From: an archaeon
GTDB taxonomy: Archaea > Methanobacteriota_B > Thermococci > Methanofastidiosales > NM3
Assembly (NCBI GenBank): GCA_004212155.1
Contig: RXIG01000013.1
Span: 1 to 54,671, forward strand
Reading direction: 5' to 3'
DNA length: 54,671 nucleotides
The notes below the pieces were generated by a model. The model was not told the origin of the DNA. It searched no databases and was given only the letters and a program-made list of their open reading frames with translations. A program made the translations under genes and the position numbers. Shown here in pieces: positions 2,694 through 29,355 of this stretch; the first letter of the stretch is position 1, and the number at the start of each line of letters is the position of its first letter.

Positions 2694-3602
2694 ATGCACA
2701 GCAAACACATTGTATCCCTCGTACTGCTCATCATGGTCATCGCTACGTTGCCCGTAAGCATTGCCCAGGAAGATGTAGACGTACTCTTTGACCTCTCTAA
2801 AGAGCATGATGCGACATATGGCAATCCTATCGTACAGTCGGATAGGTTATGCTCCTCCCTTGCCGATGACGGCATAACGTATGGATTCATTGAAGAAGAT
2901 GAAACTCTGTCCCTCGCATCTCTTGTCCGCGCCCGTATCCTGGTCATATGGGACCCGGATGAGATGTATTCATCTGAGGAAATGGAGGCGGTACGCGCTT
3001 TCGTTGAGCAGGGGGGCGTACTCATATTTGCCGGCACGTCGTTTTTCGACACGCCTTCAATGGTATTTGACAACATCAACGAGCTTTTGGACCCATTTGG
3101 CATCCAGATGGTCCATGAACGCGTCATTGACCGGACGAACTTCGTAGGATGCCATTGCGGCACGACGCCTGTTGCCACCGTATTCGCACCCGACAGCTAC
3201 TTCTACAACATCGAGGAGATCGCTTTGAGCCACTCGTGCTACCTGGAAGTAGAAGAGAACGTGACCGTCCTCGTGAAGGGGGACGATGACGCATTTGTTG
3301 ACAAGAACAATAATGAGGTCCATGACGAAGACGAACCGCAAGGCGACATCCCACTCATTGCTCAAACTGTGTATGGAGAAGGGAAGGTAATAGTGCTCCC
3401 TACTGAAAAGACGTTTGAGCGCATCTCGATTGGCAGGAAGGACAACATGAAGTTTGCTGTAAATCTCTTTGGTGACCTTGTTTCGGGCAGCCGCCCCACA
3501 GAGGAATCGTCGATCCCGATTCCATATGTGGTCGCCGGTATAGCTGTCATCGCGGTCTGTGGAGGGGCGGTGGTCATCTTCATGAGGCGCCATCAGAAAT
3601 AA
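2694..3602 (+). CDS. Exported, membrane-anchored protein with a GATase1-like (DUF4350-like) domain
   Basis: 302 residues. An N-terminal signal sequence (about residues 1-24, ending near SIAQE) and a C-terminal hydrophobic anchor (about 276-295) followed by RRHQK show a protein held on the outer face of the membrane. The body begins VDVLFDLSKEHDATYGNP and contains ARILVIWDPDEMYSSEE and FVEQGGVLIFAGTSFFD, the strand pattern of class I glutamine-amidotransferase-like folds such as DUF4350, in which catalysis is often lost; no clear Cys-His-Glu triad is visible. A short acidic stretch (DDDAFVDKNNNEVHDEDE) could bind Ca2+. GGTGGTG stands before the ATG. The last 23 bases overlap the convergent deacetylase gene. 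The function is unknown. Confidence 0.6.
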   Translation: MHSKHIVSLVLLIMVIATLPVSIAQEDVDVLFDLSKEHDATYGNPIVQSDRLCSSLADDGITYGFIEEDETLSLASLVRARILVIWDPDEMYSSEEMEAVRAFVEQGGVLIFAGTSFFDTPSMVFDNINELLDPFGIQMVHERVIDRTNFVGCHCGTTPVATVFAPDSYFYNIEEIALSHSCYLEVEENVTVLVKGDDDAFVDKNNNEVHDEDEPQGDIPLIAQTVYGEGKVIVLPTEKTFERISIGRKDNMKFAVNLFGDLVSGSRPTEESSIPIPYVVAGIAVIAVCGGAVVIFMRRHQK

Positions 3603-4452
3603 GCAATTCGTAGGCCTCTGCGAGGGTGACATACTCGACGTTCTTGTCGTGAAGGTATTCGAGGAAGGCGACGAGGCGCTGATACGTATGTGGTCCACAT
3701 GATTCCTCGATAGCCCCGTATTCTTCGGGAAGGTCGAAGTTGCATAGCTCCCAGGGGTGAAGTCCTATGACGACGATTGTTTCTGGGCGGTCATTTTGCA
3801 TATTGATGACATGTTCGAACGGTATGCTCCACTCCGTATCATGATAGTAGAATGGATAAAAGTAGTCCGGTGCGTTCGATGCTGGTATGCGAAGCATATT
3901 CATGTCCCCAACTTCAGTCCAATCGTCCCAGGAAGGATGGTACGGGTAACTATCGCCTTGATAACACGAGGCTTCCACCGTGTATCCCAAGCCTTCAAGT
4001 ATGCGTATGACTTCGGTGTCGCACGAATGCCCAGGGGCACGAAATGATGTCGGTTTGCTTCCCGTCACTGATGCAATGATGGCTGTCGCCTCTTCGATGC
4101 GTTCGACCTTTTCCTGATATCCAAGCGATGAGAGCGCGACATCATGGTACATGCCGTGGCACCCCACCTCATGGTCGTATGCGATCTGTTGCACTACGTC
4201 TGGATAATTCTCTGCTACATGACCTGTTACAAGGAATGTGGCGCGTACGCCGTGTTCCTCGAACAGTGATAGAAGCAGGGGTATTCCCTTCTCGATGCCC
4301 GAGCTGCCCTCAAGCAGCGGCGGCACGTCTCGTTCGGTATCGATGGTGAACACGACGTAGATGGGATCTGGTTCATTGACCCCGGAGGCGAACGCAAGTA
4401 GCACGCCTGCGACGACAAGCACCGCAATCACTACTGCATGCGACCGTTTCAT
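3580..4452 (-). CDS. Polysaccharide deacetylase (NodB family), exported
   Basis: 290 residues. After a signal/anchor segment (about residues 4-24) comes a NodB domain: TIDTE near the start carries the metal-binding Asp position, GCHGMYH gives the histidine pair, RAPGHS matches the third conserved motif, and GLHPWEL the late histidine. Members remove N-acetyl or related groups from sugars, so an action on the cell-surface glycan or glycoprotein coat is likely. The ATG at 4452 overlaps the stop of the peptidase gene (ATGA) and has GGAGG before it, so the two are co-translated. An in-frame start 15 bases earlier exists but is less well placed. Confidence 0.8.
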   Translation of the reverse strand: MKRSHAVVIAVLVVAGVLLAFASGVNEPDPIYVVFTIDTERDVPPLLEGSSGIEKGIPLLLSLFEEHGVRATFLVTGHVAENYPDVVQQIAYDHEVGCHGMYHDVALSSLGYQEKVERIEEATAIIASVTGSKPTSFRAPGHSCDTEVIRILEGLGYTVEASCYQGDSYPYHPSWDDWTEVGDMNMLRIPASNAPDYFYPFYYHDTEWSIPFEHVINMQNDRPETIVVIGLHPWELCNFDLPEEYGAIEESCGPHTYQRLVAFLEYLHDKNVEYVTLAEAYELLISDGAS

Positions 4453-23973: not shown

Positions 23974-24432
23974 ATGGCTGAATTTAGGCACATCGTTCGT
24001 GTCGCTGGTACAGACCTTCAGGGTGACAGGCAATTGATGCTTGCCCTGACCGGTCTTAAGGGAGTTGGGCAGATGTTTGCCCGTTCGATAGCCTTGGCTA
24101 TCGACCTCGATCCGAGCGATAAGATGGGCGAGATCTCAGATGAAGATGTTGGAAAGATAGAGGCTATCCTTGAAGATCCCATTGCGCACGGCATCCCTGC
24201 ATGGATGCTCAACAGGCGCAAGGACATGGATACCGGAAAGGACGTTCACGTGGTCGGTTCAAAACTGGCCATATCACTGCGAGAAGATGTTAACAGATTG
24301 AGAAAGATACGGGCGTACCGTGGCATCCGCCACGAATCGGGATTGCCCGTACGCGGCCAGAGGACAAAGTCCTCGTTCCGCACCGGCGGCACGCTTGGCG
24401 TGAGAAGGAAGCGCAAGGCAGAGCAGAAGTAA
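23974..24432 (+). CDS. rps13: 30S ribosomal protein S13 (uS13)
   Basis: 152 residues. It bridges the subunit heads and contacts P-site t[23 protein letters not shown] and the helix-two-turn-helix [20 protein letters not shown] open it, and [20 protein letters not shown] near the end is the signature. GGTGAAG precedes the ATG. Confidence 0.96.
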
Positions 24433-24442
24433 GGTGATTGAC

Positions 24443-25018
24443 ATGGGTGATCCAAAGAAAAAGAAGAAGCGTTACATGACTCCCACTCATCCGTGGCAGA
24501 AGGACCGCATCGATGACGAGAAGGAGCTCAAGCGCAAGTATGGATTGAAGAACAAAAAGGAGATCTGGAAGGCCCAGTCACTGCTCCGTAACATGCGGGG
24601 ACAGGCTCGAACGCTCCTTGGCACGCATACGCAACAGGCTGAAAAGGAGACAGAAGACCTCCTTGGCCGATTGAAGCGGCTGTCTATATTGAAGGAAGAG
24701 GCAGAGCTCGATGACGTGTTGGCCCTTACCATCCAGGACGTGCTCGACCGACGCCTCCAGTCCGTCGTCGTCAGGAAGGGACTTGCACTCAACATGCGCC
24801 AGGCCCGGCAGATGATATCGCATGGCCATGTCGTCGTCGATGGCCGCAGGGTCTCGATACCTAGCTACATGGTCAGCGCGCTGGAGGAGGAGACAGTAGC
24901 ATACTCGCCGTCATCGCCCTTCGTGGGCCGCGAACTGCGCCAGCAGCGCACCATGGAGGCGCCTGCGGCACCGGCCGAAGAGGCTCCAGTAAAGGAGGGA
25001 GAACAGCATGGCGAGTAA
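24443..25018 (+). CDS. rps4: 30S ribosomal protein S4 (uS4)
   Basis: 191 residues. A primary 16S rRNA binder. The S4 RNA-binding domain is [20 protein letters not shown] through [20 protein letters not shown]. The start at 24443 ([18 protein letters not shown]) lies four bases after GGTGATT, inside which an in-frame GTG falls. The C-terminal Ala/Pro/Glu tail overlaps S11 by 11 bases. Confidence 0.96.
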
Positions 25019-25403
25019 GGATCCCAAGTGGGGTGTCGCCCACATCTACGCATCGTTTAACGACACGATCATTCACATCACCGACCTATCGGGCGCTGAG
25101 ACGATCACGCGCTGGTCCGGCGGTATGATCGTCAAGGCTGACAGGGAGGAGTCATCCCCCTACGCTGCCATGAAGGCTGCCGCCAAGGCTGCCGAGGAGG
25201 CGCTTGAGCGCGGCATCGCCGGTGTGCACATCCTCGTTCGCGCCCCGGGCGGGAACAAGTCCAAGAATCCTGGCCCCGGTGCGCAGGCCGCCATCCGTTC
25301 GCTCTCGCGCGCCAAGCTCCGCATTGGCAGGATCGAGGACGTGACTCCCATTCCTCACGATGGTACCCGACCGAAGGGAGGAAGAAGGGGGAGAAGGGTA
25401 TAG
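25008..25403 (+). CDS. rps11: 30S ribosomal protein S11 (uS11)
   Basis: 131 residues. A platform protein near the mRNA exit. [20 protein letters not shown] is the N-terminal signature, [18 protein letters not shown] the helix, and [20 protein letters not shown] with [18 protein letters not shown] the end. It overlaps S4 by 11 bases. Confidence 0.97.
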
Positions 25404-25405
25404 GC

Positions 25406-26170
25406 ATGAAGGTCGATTATCTTCCCTCCACGCACGACAACGTCCTCTCGATCGTCATCGAGGGCGTTACTGCGCCGTTCGTGAACGCATTGCGGCGCGC
25501 CATACTGTCAGAGCTGCCCGTCTACGCCTGCAACGAGGTCGTATTCTACGACAACTCGAGCCCGCTCTTTGACGAGACCATCTCCCACAGGGTCGGTCTC
25601 ATACCGCTCACGACACCGGTCGACTCCGACGAGGGCAGCCGCATGGTCACGCTCAGCATGGAAGCCGAGGGGCCACGCATGGTCTATTCAGCCGACCTCG
25701 TCTCGGACGACCCCGAGGTCATGCCGATCGATGATGGATTTCCCATCGTTAAGCTCGGTGAGCGCCAGCGCCTTGTCTTCAACGCCGAATGTACGGTGGG
25801 GTACGGACGCGACCACGTGCGATGGCAGGCAGGTCTAGCTTCCTACAAGAACTATCCGGTCATCACGATCGACACGGAGCAGTGCAACCGCTGTGAAAGC
25901 TGTGTCAAGGCATGCCCCGTTGATATCCTAGCCATCGAAGACGACGTGCTCGTCGTCACTGATGCAACGAAATGCACGTTTTGCCGTTCTTGCGAGGAGG
26001 CGTGCGCCAAATCGAACGAAGAAACGCTCATATCCGTTTCTTTGGACCGTAACAAGTTTATATTTACATTAGAGTCCTTTGGCAATATGTCTGCAAAAGA
26101 TTTATTAACAACTGCCTTAAAGGTGATGGAAAACAAGTCATCTGAACTTTCGAGTCAGTTGACCGGCTAA
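25406..26170 (+). CDS. rpoD: DNA-directed RNA polymerase subunit D with two [4Fe-4S] motifs
   Basis: 254 residues. The alpha/Rpb3 homologue, which dimerises with RpoL and nucleates polymerase assembly. The core starts VLSIVIEGVTAPFVNALRRA; domain 3 (about 160-205) is ferredoxin-like with two full cysteine sets, CNRCESCVKACP and CTFCRSCEEAC, so two cubane clusters are expected. Such Fe-S domains are known from many methanogens and are lost in oxygen-living relatives, so this supports an anaerobe. The dimerisation end FIFTLESFGNMSAKDLLTTA is intact. Confidence 0.96.
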   Translation: MKVDYLPSTHDNVLSIVIEGVTAPFVNALRRAILSELPVYACNEVVFYDNSSPLFDETISHRVGLIPLTTPVDSDEGSRMVTLSMEAEGPRMVYSADLVSDDPEVMPIDDGFPIVKLGERQRLVFNAECTVGYGRDHVRWQAGLASYKNYPVITIDTEQCNRCESCVKACPVDILAIEDDVLVVTDATKCTFCRSCEEACAKSNEETLISVSLDRNKFIFTLESFGNMSAKDLLTTALKVMENKSSELSSQLTG

Positions 26171-26172
26171 TT

Positions 26173-26257
26173 GCGGGGGTTGCCGAGATTGGTCAAAGGC
26201 GCAGGGCTTAGGACCCTGTCTTGTAGAAGTTCGTGGGTTCAAATCCCATCCCCCGCA
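26173..26257 (+). tRNA. tRNA-Leu (UAG)
   Basis: 85 bases. Acceptor GCGGGGG / CCCCCGC; anticodon arm CAGGG-CTTAGGA-CCCTG with anticodon TAG; variable arm TCTTGTAGAAGTTCG; T arm around GGTTCAAATCC. Discriminator A, no encoded CCA. It precedes L18e as in haloarchaea. Confidence 0.95.
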
Positions 26258-26319
26258 CTAAAACGTACGCACACTGGGCGAGCGGACGAGGTCCGCTACC
26301 GAGTTCGGGAGTGTTAGAG

Positions 26320-26682
26320 ATGAAAAAACTGAGAAAGACGAACGCAACATTGTTGCAGCTTATCGAGACCATGCGGTCAAAAGGATATTCGGAGGGCGTG
26401 CCGTTGTGGGTGGCCCTTTCGAAGAGGTTGTCAAAACCATCACGCCGCATGAGCGAAGTGAACATATCGACCCTTAACAGGTATGCGAGCGAGAACGAGA
26501 TCGCCGTCGTCCCTGGCAAGGTACTTGGCTCCGGAGAGCTTGACCACAAGGTCACGGTCGCCGCGTTCAAGTTCACCGAGTCGGCCCGACGCAAGATCGA
26601 AGAGAACGGAAAAGCGTTGACGTTAAACGAGCTCATGGAGCAGAATCCCACAGGGTCCAACGTGAGGATTATAGGGGGATGA
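26320..26682 (+). CDS. rpl18e: 50S ribosomal protein L18e (eL18)
   Basis: 120 residues, related in fold to L15. MKKLRKTNATLLQLIETMRS is the archaeal start and VVPGKVLGSGELDHKVTVAA the signature. The frame is open further upstream through the tRNA, so the ATG at 26320 with GGGAGTG before it is used. The stop overlaps L13. Confidence 0.94.
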   Translation: MKKLRKTNATLLQLIETMRSKGYSEGVPLWVALSKRLSKPSRRMSEVNISTLNRYASENEIAVVPGKVLGSGELDHKVTVAAFKFTESARRKIEENGKALTLNELMEQNPTGSNVRIIGG

Positions 26683-27110
26683 GTGGCATGAACATCGACG
26701 GAGACAACATGATACTTGGACGGATGGCCAACGAGGTCGCACAGTACCTGCTTGCAGGCCAAGACGTTACCATCGTGAACGCCGAGAAGGTCATCATCAC
26801 GGGAAACAAGGAGAACATCTTCAAGCGATTCAAGCACCGCACGGACCTCTCCGACAGGGCGAATCCGACCCACGGACCGTTCTTTCCCAAGACCCCCGCA
26901 CGCATCGTTCGCAGGACCATTCGCGGCATGCTCCCATGGAGGAAGCCTTCCGGGCGAGCCGCATACAGGCGATTGCGCGTCTTCGAGGGTGTCCCCGAGA
27001 CGTTTGAGGGGTCAGATTTCACGAAGATCGAGAATGCCGACGGTGCCAGGCTTGGCACACACAAGATCATGAGGGTAGACGAACTCTCCAGATATTTACG
27101 GGGTGAGTAG
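26679..27110 (+). CDS. rpl13: 50S ribosomal protein L13 (uL13)
   Basis: 143 residues. INIDGDNMILGRMANEVAQ-like start (MNIDGDNMILGRMANEVAQY), VTIVNAEKVIITGNKENIF and PARIVRRTIRGMLPW are conserved. The ATG at 26679 overlaps the L18e stop; the next ATG at 26688 is an equally likely start. Confidence 0.95.
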   Translation: MSGMNIDGDNMILGRMANEVAQYLLAGQDVTIVNAEKVIITGNKENIFKRFKHRTDLSDRANPTHGPFFPKTPARIVRRTIRGMLPWRKPSGRAAYRRLRVFEGVPETFEGSDFTKIENADGARLGTHKIMRVDELSRYLRGE

Positions 27111-27515
27111 ATGAAGATAGTGCAGTCAAGCGGAAAGAGGAAGAGGGCCGTTGCCCGCGCCGTCGTCACAGAAGGCAAGGGCCGTGTCCGCGTCAACAGA
27201 AAGCCCCTTGTACTCGTTGAACCAGAGATGGCAAAGCTCAAGATGATGGAACCCATCTACATCGCAGGCGACATCGCCTCCTCATACGACATCAACATCA
27301 AGGTCTATGGCGGTGGGATCATGGGCCAGGCCGATGCATGCAGGATGGCCATCGCGCAGGGCCTAGTCGAGATATCCGGCGACATGGAGCTCAAGGACCG
27401 GTACATGGAATATGACCGCTCCATGCTCAAGGGTGACACCCGACGGACCGAACAACACAAACCAAACAAGTCATCACAGGGTGCACGCGCCAAGCGACAG
27501 AAGTCATACAGGTAG
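27111..27515 (+). CDS. rps9: 30S ribosomal protein S9 (uS9)
   Basis: 134 residues. Its C-terminal tail touches P-site t[23 protein letters not shown] opens it; [20 protein letters not shown] is the core and the end [11 protein letters not shown] is the invariant basic tail. It abuts L13. Confidence 0.96.
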
Positions 27516-27520
27516 ATGCA

Positions 27521-27712
27521 ATGATATTTCCAATACGCTGCTTCACATGCGGGAAACCAATAGGGCATCTCTACGAGCCCTATATTGAGCGCATACAGGA
27601 GGAACCCCGGAACAAGGTCTTGGACGACCTCGGGGTCACCCGTTATTGCTGTAGGCGCATGTTCCTTACGCATGTGGACCTGATAGACGAGGTACTTGAG
27701 TTTAGCGTGTAA
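27521..27712 (+). CDS. rpoN: DNA-directed RNA polymerase subunit N
   Basis: 63 residues, the Rpb10 homologue. The zinc-bundle motif MIFPIRCFTCGKPIGHLYEP gives the CxxC pair and RYCCRRM the adjacent CC pair. A small polymerase-assembly subunit. In many euryarchaea rpoK follows, but here the next features are tRNA-Pro and an enolase-like gene. Confidence 0.96.
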   Translation: MIFPIRCFTCGKPIGHLYEPYIERIQEEPRNKVLDDLGVTRYCCRRMFLTHVDLIDEVLEFSV

Positions 27713-27721
27713 GACAAACGT

Positions 27722-27799
27722 GGGGCCGTAGGGTAGCTTGGACCATCCTCTCACCTTGGGGTGGTGGACACTCGAGTTCAAATCTCGGCGGCCCCACCA
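27722..27799 (+). tRNA. tRNA-Pro (GGG), CCA encoded
   Basis: 75 bases plus an encoded CCA. Acceptor GGGGCCG / CGGCCCC; anticodon arm TCACC-TTGGGGT-GGTGG with a G-U pair at the base and anticodon GGG; T arm TCGAG-TTCAAAT-CTCGG. Discriminator A followed by CCA at 27797-27799. The place between the polymerase gene and the enolase position is shared with haloarchaea. Confidence 0.93.
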
Positions 27800-27843: not shown

Positions 27844-28422
27844 GTGAGTGTGATTGAGGACTTTGCGATTCGAACGCTCTATGGCGACACGAGAGATCTA
27901 GTAGAAGTAGACCTCTTTACCGCCAGTTCGTTCGGACGTGCACAGGTCCGTGCCTCGCTCGATGTCGACGACCTCACGACGGTCGCGGCACCCGAGCTCG
28001 TCGGTCTCAACGTCCTCGAACAGCGGCTCTTTGACGATGTCGTAGAGGAGGTAGCCGAGGACCCCAATGCTCGCTTCGCGTTCTCACTGGCATGTGCAAA
28101 GGCGGCAGCGTCCTATATCGGGCTTCCCCTCTACCAATACCTTGGCGGCGTCTTCAACGTGAGCACACCGTCGATCGTATACGGTGACTCAGAGGTGGAC
28201 ACAGCGTTCAACGTGGTGGCGCCGGCGCCCCGTATCGACTACAGCGAGCTTGCAACGTTGAGCTCACTTTCCACGCAGGTGCCGTTAACCGGCGGCCTGC
28301 AATACGTCGAGGAGGGCAGCTGGCATGTCGCATGCGGCCTTTCATACCGCTATGTAGAGATATACAAGAAAGAAGATATTAACGAGCTCTTAAGAATAAA
28401 GGAACACATGACGGAGGTGTAG
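27844..28422 (+). CDS. Enolase-like protein lacking the catalytic barrel
   Basis: 192 residues, less than half of enolase (about 410-430). The first part follows the enolase capping domain: [28 protein letters not shown], and [20 protein letters not shown] then LYQYLGG, which is a close match to the conserved AKAAA...LPLYRYLGG region. After about residue 105 the alignment breaks; the last 20 residues ([20 protein letters not shown]) resemble the very end of enolase (YNQLLRIEEEL). The barrel with the metal ligands and the catalytic Lys and Glu residues is absent, so it cannot be an active enolase. It keeps the usual enolase place before S2, is in frame and ends two bases before S2. The GTG start at 27844 is uncertain. 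Confidence 0.75.
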
Positions 28423-28424
28423 AG

Positions 28425-29021
28425 ATGACTGATGAATTATTGATCCCTCTTGACCAATACCTTGCATCCGGTATTCACATCGGTACTCAACAGAAAACGA
28501 AGGACATGGAGCGATACATCTATCGCGTGCGACAGGATGGGCTCTATGTGCTCGATATCAAGGCGACGGACCAGCGCATCCGCTCGATCGGAAAGCTCTT
28601 GGCAAAGTACGATCCACAGAAGGTGCTTGTCGTCTCGACCAGGGTATATGGTCACAAACCGGTACGGAAGTTCTCCGAGCATACCCACTGCAAGTCGGTG
28701 GCGGGACGATTCATACCAGGGATGTTGACGAATCCAAGCAACAGCCAGTTCATGGAGCCCGAGCTCCTTATCATCACCGACCCCCGTGCCGACTATCAGG
28801 CGCTGAGGGAGGGTGCAAGCATAGGCATACCCATCGTGGCACTATGCGACTCAGAGAACATGATCTCAAACGTCGACCTTGCCATACCGACCAACAACAA
28901 GGGACGCAAGGCGCTCTCCTTGATATACTACCTGCTTGCGCGCGAGATGCTTCGGGCCAACGGCACGTTGCCAGACGACGGCGACATCGACTTCGAACTC
29001 GAGGACTTCAAACAACCGTAA
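28425..29021 (+). CDS. rps2: 30S ribosomal protein S2 (uS2)
   Basis: 198 residues, archaeal length. [20 protein letters not shown] is the start, [20 protein letters not shown] and [20 protein letters not shown] follow, and [20 protein letters not shown] with [20 protein letters not shown] forms the signature. GGAGGTGTAGAG precedes the ATG. It closes the supercluster. Confidence 0.97.
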
Positions 29022-29121: not shown

Positions 29122-29213
29122 CATAGTTCATGCTCTAGCGGCCTAGTCGCCAGTACGAAACACGCACTAATCAAGAAATATTTTTATAGCTGCGCCCGAT
29201 GGTATGGGTACGC

Positions 29214-29355
29214 GCGGGGGTTGCCGAGCTTGGTCAAAGGCGCTGGACTTAAGATCTAGGCGTGCACTGTTGTGCACGATCGTCATCGGGAGTGCGTCTT
29301 TGGATAAGAAATCCAGTTTCGCAGGAATCCGCGGGTTCAAATCCCGCCCCCCGCA
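29214..29355 (+). tRNA. tRNA-Leu (UAA) with a 57-base intron
   Basis: The mature tRNA is 85 bases: acceptor GCGGGGG / CCCCCGC, anticodon stem CTGGA / TCCAG with loop CTTAAGA and anticodon TAA, T arm GCGGG-TTCAAAT-CCCGC, discriminator A, no CCA. The stem halves are separated by 29254-29310, an insert directly after position 37, the canonical archaeal intron place. The junctions can form the bulge-helix-bulge recognised by the splicing endonuclease. The intron contains a strong hairpin (CGTGCAC...GTGCACG). Confidence 0.92.

What the first reader, a model, noticed from the sequence alone, without database searches (positions are those of the whole stretch)
27844..28422. Barrel-less enolase at the conserved enolase position
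The protein keeps enolase capping-domain motifs and what looks like the enolase C-terminal tail, but the catalytic barrel is gone; the frame is intact and placed two bases before S2. Either a full enolase lies elsewhere and this relic has a new job (for example in the ribosome or polymerase setting), or the lineage lacks glycolytic enolase.
Basis: partly seen in the sequence, partly recalled or inferred. Interest (0 to 1): 0.58.

Follow-up and report, generated by a model that had tools for sequence, protein, structure and literature searches.

The report
Barrel-less enolase remnant beside S2
In a group of methanogen-like archaea, the enolase gene that sits among ribosomal-protein genes has shrunk to a small protein that lost the whole catalytic part but kept the part by which enolase pairs up, which points to an old non-glycolytic job for enolase near the ribosome.

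Summary
Window 27844-28422 (+) encodes a 192-aa protein, two bases before S2, whose N-terminal domain and last barrel helices are enolase-derived, while the catalytic barrel is missing. It is not decay: 18 of 21 genomes of its order carry an intact 191-200-aa form directly before S2, with dN/dS of about 0.06-0.12. The catalytic residues are gone, but four residues of the enolase dimer-interface elements are unchanged. The genome holds two full-length enolases elsewhere, one with all catalytic residues. In Thermococcaceae-like genomes of the class the same slot carries a 342-aa dead enolase; other archaea have an active-looking full enolase there. That the in-place copy keeps an ancillary, ribosome-linked role was proposed in 2015 for Thermococci (PMC4390880). 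New here: the extreme barrel-less form, and that what survives is the dimerisation module. Best explanation: a non-catalytic dimeric docking protein, independent of glycolytic enolase. Its partner is unknown.

The parts
27844..28422 (+). barrel-less enolase-derived protein, 192 aa (GTG start)
27844..28170 (+). residues 1-109: enolase N-terminal (capping) domain, three strands and four helices; 30 of the 39 invariant columns; active-site loop 1 deleted
   Evidence: profile match to operonic enolases E 1e-30
28171..28314 (+). residues 110-157: linker in place of most of the barrel; 1 of 39 invariant columns; no detectable enolase sequence, modelled as short strands
28315..28419 (+). residues 158-192: last helix-strand-helix of the enolase barrel, with R184 and E187 (yeast R414, E417)
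28413..28419 (+). GGAGGTG, Shine-Dalgarno-like, inside the end of the gene, for S2 (read by eye)
28425..29021 (+). ribosomal protein S2, directly downstream
27722..27799 (+). tRNA-Pro (GGG), between rpoN and the gene; kept in relatives
27521..27712 (+). rpoN (RNA polymerase subunit N)
23974..27515 (+). S13, S4, S11, rpoD, tRNA-Leu, L18e, L13, S9: the rest of the archaeal alpha/L18e cluster (names by reading the sequences; order conserved in relatives)

Best explanation
The gene descends from the enolase that archaea keep between rpoN/rpoK and S2. After a second enolase took over catalysis, the in-place copy lost catalysis (342-aa form in Thermococcaceae-like genomes) and in this order lost most of the barrel. 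What remains is the capping domain plus the last strand and helix of the barrel, i.e. most of the elements that build the enolase dimer. It most likely forms a small acidic homodimer that acts as a non-catalytic docking protein, its dimer cleft holding a partner of the co-encoded machinery (ribosome assembly or RNA polymerase), much as the enolase dimer cleft of E. coli holds a segment of RNase E. Shown: descent, loss of catalytic residues, purifying selection, fixed place, unchanged interface residues. Inferred: dimer formation, the docking role, and that the partner belongs to the ribosome/polymerase setting.
For: Descent: the short and 342-aa forms plus one operonic full enolase lie on one side of a branch against 21 other full enolases, support 100/99; active-looking enolases sit in the same slot in a Bathyarchaeota genome and in 16 of 25 Halobacteriota loci read. 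Loss of catalysis: the ten-residue catalytic set is gone in 8 of 8 short rows, against 10 of 10 kept in the C10 enolase. Dimer module: the columns of yeast R8, E20, R414, E417 read R, E, R, E in 8 of 8 short and 9 of 9 342-aa rows; the matching residues R10, E21, R184, E187 are invariant in all 18 short members. Literature: enolase monomers pair through beta1-beta3, alpha5 and alpha12 (PMC4667285, section 15); R11:E425 is an inter-subunit salt bridge in Plasmodium enolase (PMC5494301, abstract and passages); the RNase E segment lies in the cleft of the enolase dimer (PMC5758883, passages). Selection: median dN/dS 0.078 in 44 pairs, 0.058 for the closest pair, S2 0.02-0.04. Independence from enolase: six genomes keep it without a full enolase. 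A 361-362-aa dead form also occurs at the same slot in 6 of 25 Halobacteriota loci, hinting that catalysis is dispensable there more than once.
Against: No partner and no dimer was shown; alpha5, the other interface helix, is not retained as such. The interface residues are also part of the enolase fold, so their conservation may be inheritance. In the 362-aa Halobacteriota form R8 is replaced by S or T. The protein is acidic (pI 4.3-4.9), which speaks against direct rRNA binding. The gene is absent from family f3, whose S2 locus is intact (G006, G009), so it is dispensable. Position may be mere inheritance. Two origins of dead forms are favoured by the tree (95/85), but one origin is not rejected (p-AU 0.22 and 0.455).
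Confidence: 0.5

Rival explanations
1. It is a regulatory subunit of the full-length enolase: it pairs with a catalytic subunit through the shared dimer interface and so tunes or stabilises glycolytic enolase.
For: Interface residues are kept on both proteins; 14 of 20 other genomes of the order and the window's genome have a full enolase.
Against: Six genomes with the short form show no full enolase; 3 of these are 91-94% complete, and G003, G004, G013 and G016 also lack ApgM. MAG gaps could explain some of these. Family f3 has enolase but not the short form.
Confidence: 0.15
2. It keeps a new function of its own in the capping domain (for example small-molecule binding), unrelated to dimerisation; the place beside S2 is inherited only.
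For: Other invariant residues lie outside the interface set (for example S29, G31, R77, F78, T138, H161); strong selection.
Against: No active-site set is left; T138 is the only invariant residue of the linker.
Confidence: 0.2
3. The gene is kept mainly for translational coupling: its reading frame carries the ribosome-binding site and sets the translation of S2, the protein itself mattering little.
For: Stop and S2 start overlap or lie a few bases apart in all 18 loci, and in the window GGAGGTG lies inside the gene end.
Against: Selection acts on amino acids along the protein (dN/dS 0.06-0.12) and the protein is predicted to fold; family f3 encodes S2 without it.
Confidence: 0.08
4. It is a decaying pseudogene or a split half whose barrel is encoded elsewhere.
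For: Barrel missing.
Against: 18 intact copies, purifying selection; no separate barrel found with PF00113 in the window's genome nor in the six genomes without full enolase.
Confidence: 0.01

Closest known systems
PRK08350 / NF006223 (342-aa enolase-like protein of Thermococcales, P. furiosus PF1641 type)
   Same: Same slot before S2, related N-terminal and C-terminal sequence, catalytic residues lost, interface residues kept
   Different: 342 aa with more of the barrel left, rpoK still between tRNA-Pro and the gene; the window protein scores 40.6 bits against a cut-off of 624. That PF1641 is this gene is inferred from a gene table (PMC3561251, passage)
In-place enolase paralogues (branches 3 and 4) of Thermococci and Methanococci, Makarova et al. 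2015, PMC4390880 (passages read)
   Same: The proposal that the copy in the ribosomal superoperon keeps only an ancillary function and not glycolysis
   Different: The words catalytic, truncat-, inactiv-, Methanofastidios- and WSA2 do not occur in the held text; the barrel-less form is not described in the passages read
Archaeal operonic enolase (Bathyarchaeota L035; Halobacteriota loci within L208-L227)
   Same: Place rpoN-(rpoK)-eno-S2; near-identical first ten residues and the C-terminal INELIR motif
   Different: Full barrel; 10 of 10 catalytic residues in all 16 full-length Halobacteriota loci and in L035
Enolase of the E. coli RNA degradosome (docking of RNase E in the dimer cleft; PMC5758883, passages)
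   Same: Works like, as a hypothesis: docking through the enolase dimer, apart from catalysis
   Different: Full active enzyme; partner RNase E; no partner known here

Membership tests
Enolase (phosphopyruvate hydratase, TIGR01060 / PF00113+PF03952) | catalytic and metal-binding residues S39, H159, E168, E211, D246, E295, D320, K345, H373, K396 (yeast numbers, recalled; columns found with the C10 enolase) | tested here: not met
   deleted or replaced as a set in 8 of 8 short rows aligned; single letters E, K or S at some aligned columns fall in unalignable stretches
Enolase (phosphopyruvate hydratase, TIGR01060 / PF00113+PF03952) | eight-stranded C-terminal barrel (PF00113) | tested here: not met
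   no PF00113 hit at E up to 10; only the terminal part matches
Enolase (phosphopyruvate hydratase, TIGR01060 / PF00113+PF03952) | N-terminal capping domain (PF03952) | tested here: met
   E 4e-8, 34 bits against cut-off 35 for the single protein; profile match to operonic enolases E 1e-30; model superposes on enolases, Z about 16.5
Enolase dimer module | charged interface residues R8, E20 (beta strands) and R414, E417 (last helix) | tested here: met
   4 of 4 in 8 of 8 short rows, invariant in 18 of 18. Only R11:E425 of Plasmodium (R8:E417 by offset) was read in print; E20:R414 is recalled
Enolase dimer module | actual dimer in solution | not testable with these tools
   no multimer prediction offered
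NF006223 / PRK08350 | whole-length match over the curated cut-off | tested here: not met
   40.6 bits against 624; the short and 342-aa profiles align over columns 1-194 to 1-333 with E 1.8e-25, so a shortened sister, not a member
Degradosome-type enolase docking | binds an RNase E-like segment in the dimer cleft | not testable with these tools
   needs pull-down or multimer modelling

The most novel reading that the evidence does not exclude
The ancillary, non-glycolytic function of the enolase encoded in the archaeal ribosomal/RNA-polymerase cluster resides wholly in its dimerisation module, and this order has distilled that module into a dedicated 21-kDa dimeric factor for ribosome biogenesis or transcription-translation coupling, the archaeal counterpart of enolase docking in the bacterial degradosome.
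Probability: 0.22. Interest if true: 0.78.

Novelty: new variant of a known kind. Interest (0 to 1): 0.57.

Why it matters
Why enolase sits among ribosomal and polymerase genes in archaea is an open question. A protein from which evolution has removed the catalytic barrel, while selection still holds it in that slot, separates the second job from glycolysis and shows which part of enolase carries it. That turns the question into one for a 21-kDa protein that can be expressed, tagged and pulled down, with a 342-aa homologue in genetically tractable Thermococcus.

Tried and rejected
Pseudogene and split-gene readings: rejected. Unrelated family over the whole length: Pfam and NCBIfam gave only enolase models and a weak Prenylcys_lyase hit, E 0.03; PHROGs and PADLOC were not searched. 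Nucleic-acid binding as the prime role: judged unlikely from pI 4.3-4.9. Structure of the 342-aa form: the model is poor (pLDDT 43, pTM 0.40) and was not used. Foldseek alone gave TM about 0.5 with rmsd mostly 3-6 for enolases; the second aligner gave Z 16-17.5, and other enolase-superfamily members (methylaspartate ammonia lyase, dipeptide epimerase) score as high at 10-15% identity, so the fold search places it in the superfamily and the sequence places it with enolases. Other barrel-less forms: among 100 Halobacteriota and 101 Thermoproteota genomes sampled the listed matches have open frames of 361 aa or more except G115 (188, a gene split over two overlapping frames) and G202 (205, on a contig that ends at 3609, soon after the match at 3195-3431). 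The phylum names are read from the titles of the named loci that led to them (L038, L035) and from recall. Literature: ten searches; no paper on the short form was seen in those listings, which cover only the held open-access library. Searches for named homologues (PF1641, TK1497) gave one gene table and, for TK2106 (the other copy), one interactome paper.

Rows dropped: one search used 8 of 18 short rows, 9 342-aa rows, one operonic full and 21 other full enolases (two duplicates from L200 and the incomplete L166 left out). One search used 8 of 18 short, 6 of 9 342-aa, 5 of 6 362-aa rows (L204 left out, same scores as L203), 17 operonic full and 11 other full rows; the split L217 was left out. 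The dN/dS used one pair of family f1 (L003/L004), 45 pairs of f4 (44 with finite dS) and 3 of f2, not all pairs; S2 was read whole in 17 of 18 loci (L017 ends too early).

Full report
What is there. Window 27844-28422 on the + strand is an open reading frame of 192 codons, starting with GTG and ending two bases before the ATG of S2. Upstream lie S13, S4, S11, rpoD, tRNA-Leu, L18e, L13, S9, rpoN and tRNA-Pro. Single-sequence scans find the enolase N-terminal domain (Pfam E 4e-8, 34 bits with a cut-off of 35) and two NCBIfam enolase models far under their cut-offs; there is no match to the enolase barrel family.

Anatomy. An AlphaFold model from 18 relatives is good (pLDDT 87.1, pTM 0.85; two of the five models were weaker at 75 and 73). 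It shows three strands and four helices of the capping domain, then a few short strands, and a terminal helix-strand-helix. A second structural aligner superposes residues 1-192 on enolase chains spanning residues 1-420 at rmsd 2.3-2.4 and Z 16-17; Foldseek gives enolases as best hits at E 5e-9 with TM about 0.5. By profile comparison residues 1-112 match operonic enolases (E 1e-30) and the last 38 columns match the barrel end (probability 94%), whereas residues 101-147 match nothing beyond the first 13-15 columns. Most of the barrel has therefore been cut out and its two ends joined by a linker.

Conservation. A profile search of 115 genomes of the phylum finds the short form in 18 of the 21 genomes of the window's order. 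It is missing in G006 and G009 (one family, S2 locus intact, nothing of the kind between rpoN and S2) and in G011, where S2 itself was not found. In all 18 the gene lies directly before S2, with stop and start overlapping or a few bases apart (in L017 only the start of S2 is on the contig). Thirty-nine columns are invariant: 30 in residues 1-109, one in the linker, eight in the last 35. Codon comparison gives dN/dS of 0.058 for the closest pair, median 0.078 (44 pairs, family f4) and 0.103 (3 pairs, family f2), against 0.02-0.04 for S2. The protein is acidic in all 18 (pI 4.3-4.9).

What was lost and what was kept. Aligned with full enolases, the short rows (8 of 8 examined) lack the catalytic set, and the 342-aa rows (9 of 9) have lost it too apart from K345 and an acidic residue at the E168 column; the C10 enolase keeps 10 of 10. 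The columns of yeast R8, E20, R414 and E417 are R, E, R, E in all short and 342-aa rows. R8:E417 corresponds by offset (three residues at the start plus the five-residue insert) to R11:E425, the inter-subunit salt bridge of Plasmodium enolase (PMC5494301, abstract and passages); E20:R414 as a pair is recalled. The S. aureus enolase paper states that monomers pair through beta1-beta3, alpha5 and alpha12 (PMC4667285, section 15); of these the short form keeps beta1-beta3 and the last helix, alpha12.

Descent. In the class, 92 of 94 Thermococcaceae-like genomes match; the operonic-type matches listed have open frames of 342-393 aa, and where the locus was read (L187) the order is rpoN, tRNA-Pro, rpoK, 342-aa form, S2. 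In a Bathyarchaeota genome and in Halobacteriota an enolase sits at the same place; of 25 Halobacteriota loci, 23 show S2, rpoK or rpoN beside it: 16 full-length with 10 of 10 catalytic residues, 6 of 361-362 aa with most of them lost, and one split in two frames. A tree of shared columns puts short, 342-aa and the one operonic full row on one side of a branch against 21 other full enolases (100/99). With more operonic rows, short and 342-aa forms stay together (95/85) and the 362-aa form nests among Halobacteriota operonic enolases (95/85 when short rows are left out), which suggests a second, separate loss of catalysis; holding the dead forms as one clade is not rejected (p-AU 0.455 and 0.221). 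Long branches make these placements uncertain.

Enolase elsewhere. The window's genome has two full-length enolases, on C10 (444 aa) and C18 (431 aa, H159 and H373 replaced). Among the 20 other genomes of the order, 14 have a full enolase and 6 do not. Four of the six (G003, G004, G013, G016) also lack ApgM, as do G006, G009 and G019. All six keep the short form. Incompleteness (the six are 69-94% complete) may explain some of these, but the short form is not visibly tied to a full enolase.

How it most likely works. The parts kept are those that make the enolase dimer, the parts lost are those that make it an enzyme. In E. coli the cleft of that dimer holds a segment of RNase E (PMC5758883, passages). 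The simplest reading is a small homodimer that docks a partner. The place between polymerase and ribosomal genes, held for a gene whose glycolytic role is gone, makes ribosome assembly or transcription-translation coupling the first candidates. [quoted passage not shown] Dimer, partner and process remain inferred.

Organism. The genome has McrA, so it is a methanogen or a relative of one; its class also holds genomes that look like Thermococcaceae. An order such as Methanofastidiosales is my inference from recall; a contig of a family-f2 relative (G005) matches in length and coordinates a record titled Methanomicrobia archaeon AUK010.

Novelty. The general idea (in-place enolase with an ancillary role) is in print. 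The barrel-less form, the retained interface set, its independence from full enolase and the further dead operonic group in Halobacteriota were not seen in the ten searches made, which cover open-access papers only.

Noticed in passing
L002:1066-2361 (G000:C18); G011 relative L174: A second full-length enolase with H159 to L and H373 to E and, in L002, an altered loop 1 (GRSRG). In L002 it is flanked by ORFs that look by eye like a glycerate kinase and a class I aldolase (no family call made). A different substrate is possible.
   Followed up: partly
L203-L207, L211 (six Halobacteriota genomes): A 361-362-aa enolase-like protein with most catalytic residues lost in the rpoN-rpoK-eno-S2 slot; five of the six genomes show a further match in a 404-450-aa open frame.
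   Followed up: partly
G000:C9:35168-35311 (L153, L188): rpoK has left the rpoN-eno-S2 cluster in this order; in a Thermococcaceae-like genome it is still there.
   Followed up: partly
window 29205-29330: Sequence after S2 looks like a tRNA-Leu (UAA) with an intron; ARAGORN does not call it here but finds tRNA-Leu (taa) after S2 in L184, L187 and L190.
   Followed up: no
window 25406-26170: RpoD carries cysteine-rich ferredoxin-like motifs, as in archaea with an iron-sulphur RpoD (read by eye).
   Followed up: no
L038:7992-9196 (Methanogenium cariaci): The operonic enolase is split over two overlapping frames: a sequencing error or recent decay.
   Followed up: no
G010:C67:4704-5555 (L166): Full enolase with one internal TGA, possibly decaying or an assembly error, while the short form is intact.
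   Followed up: no
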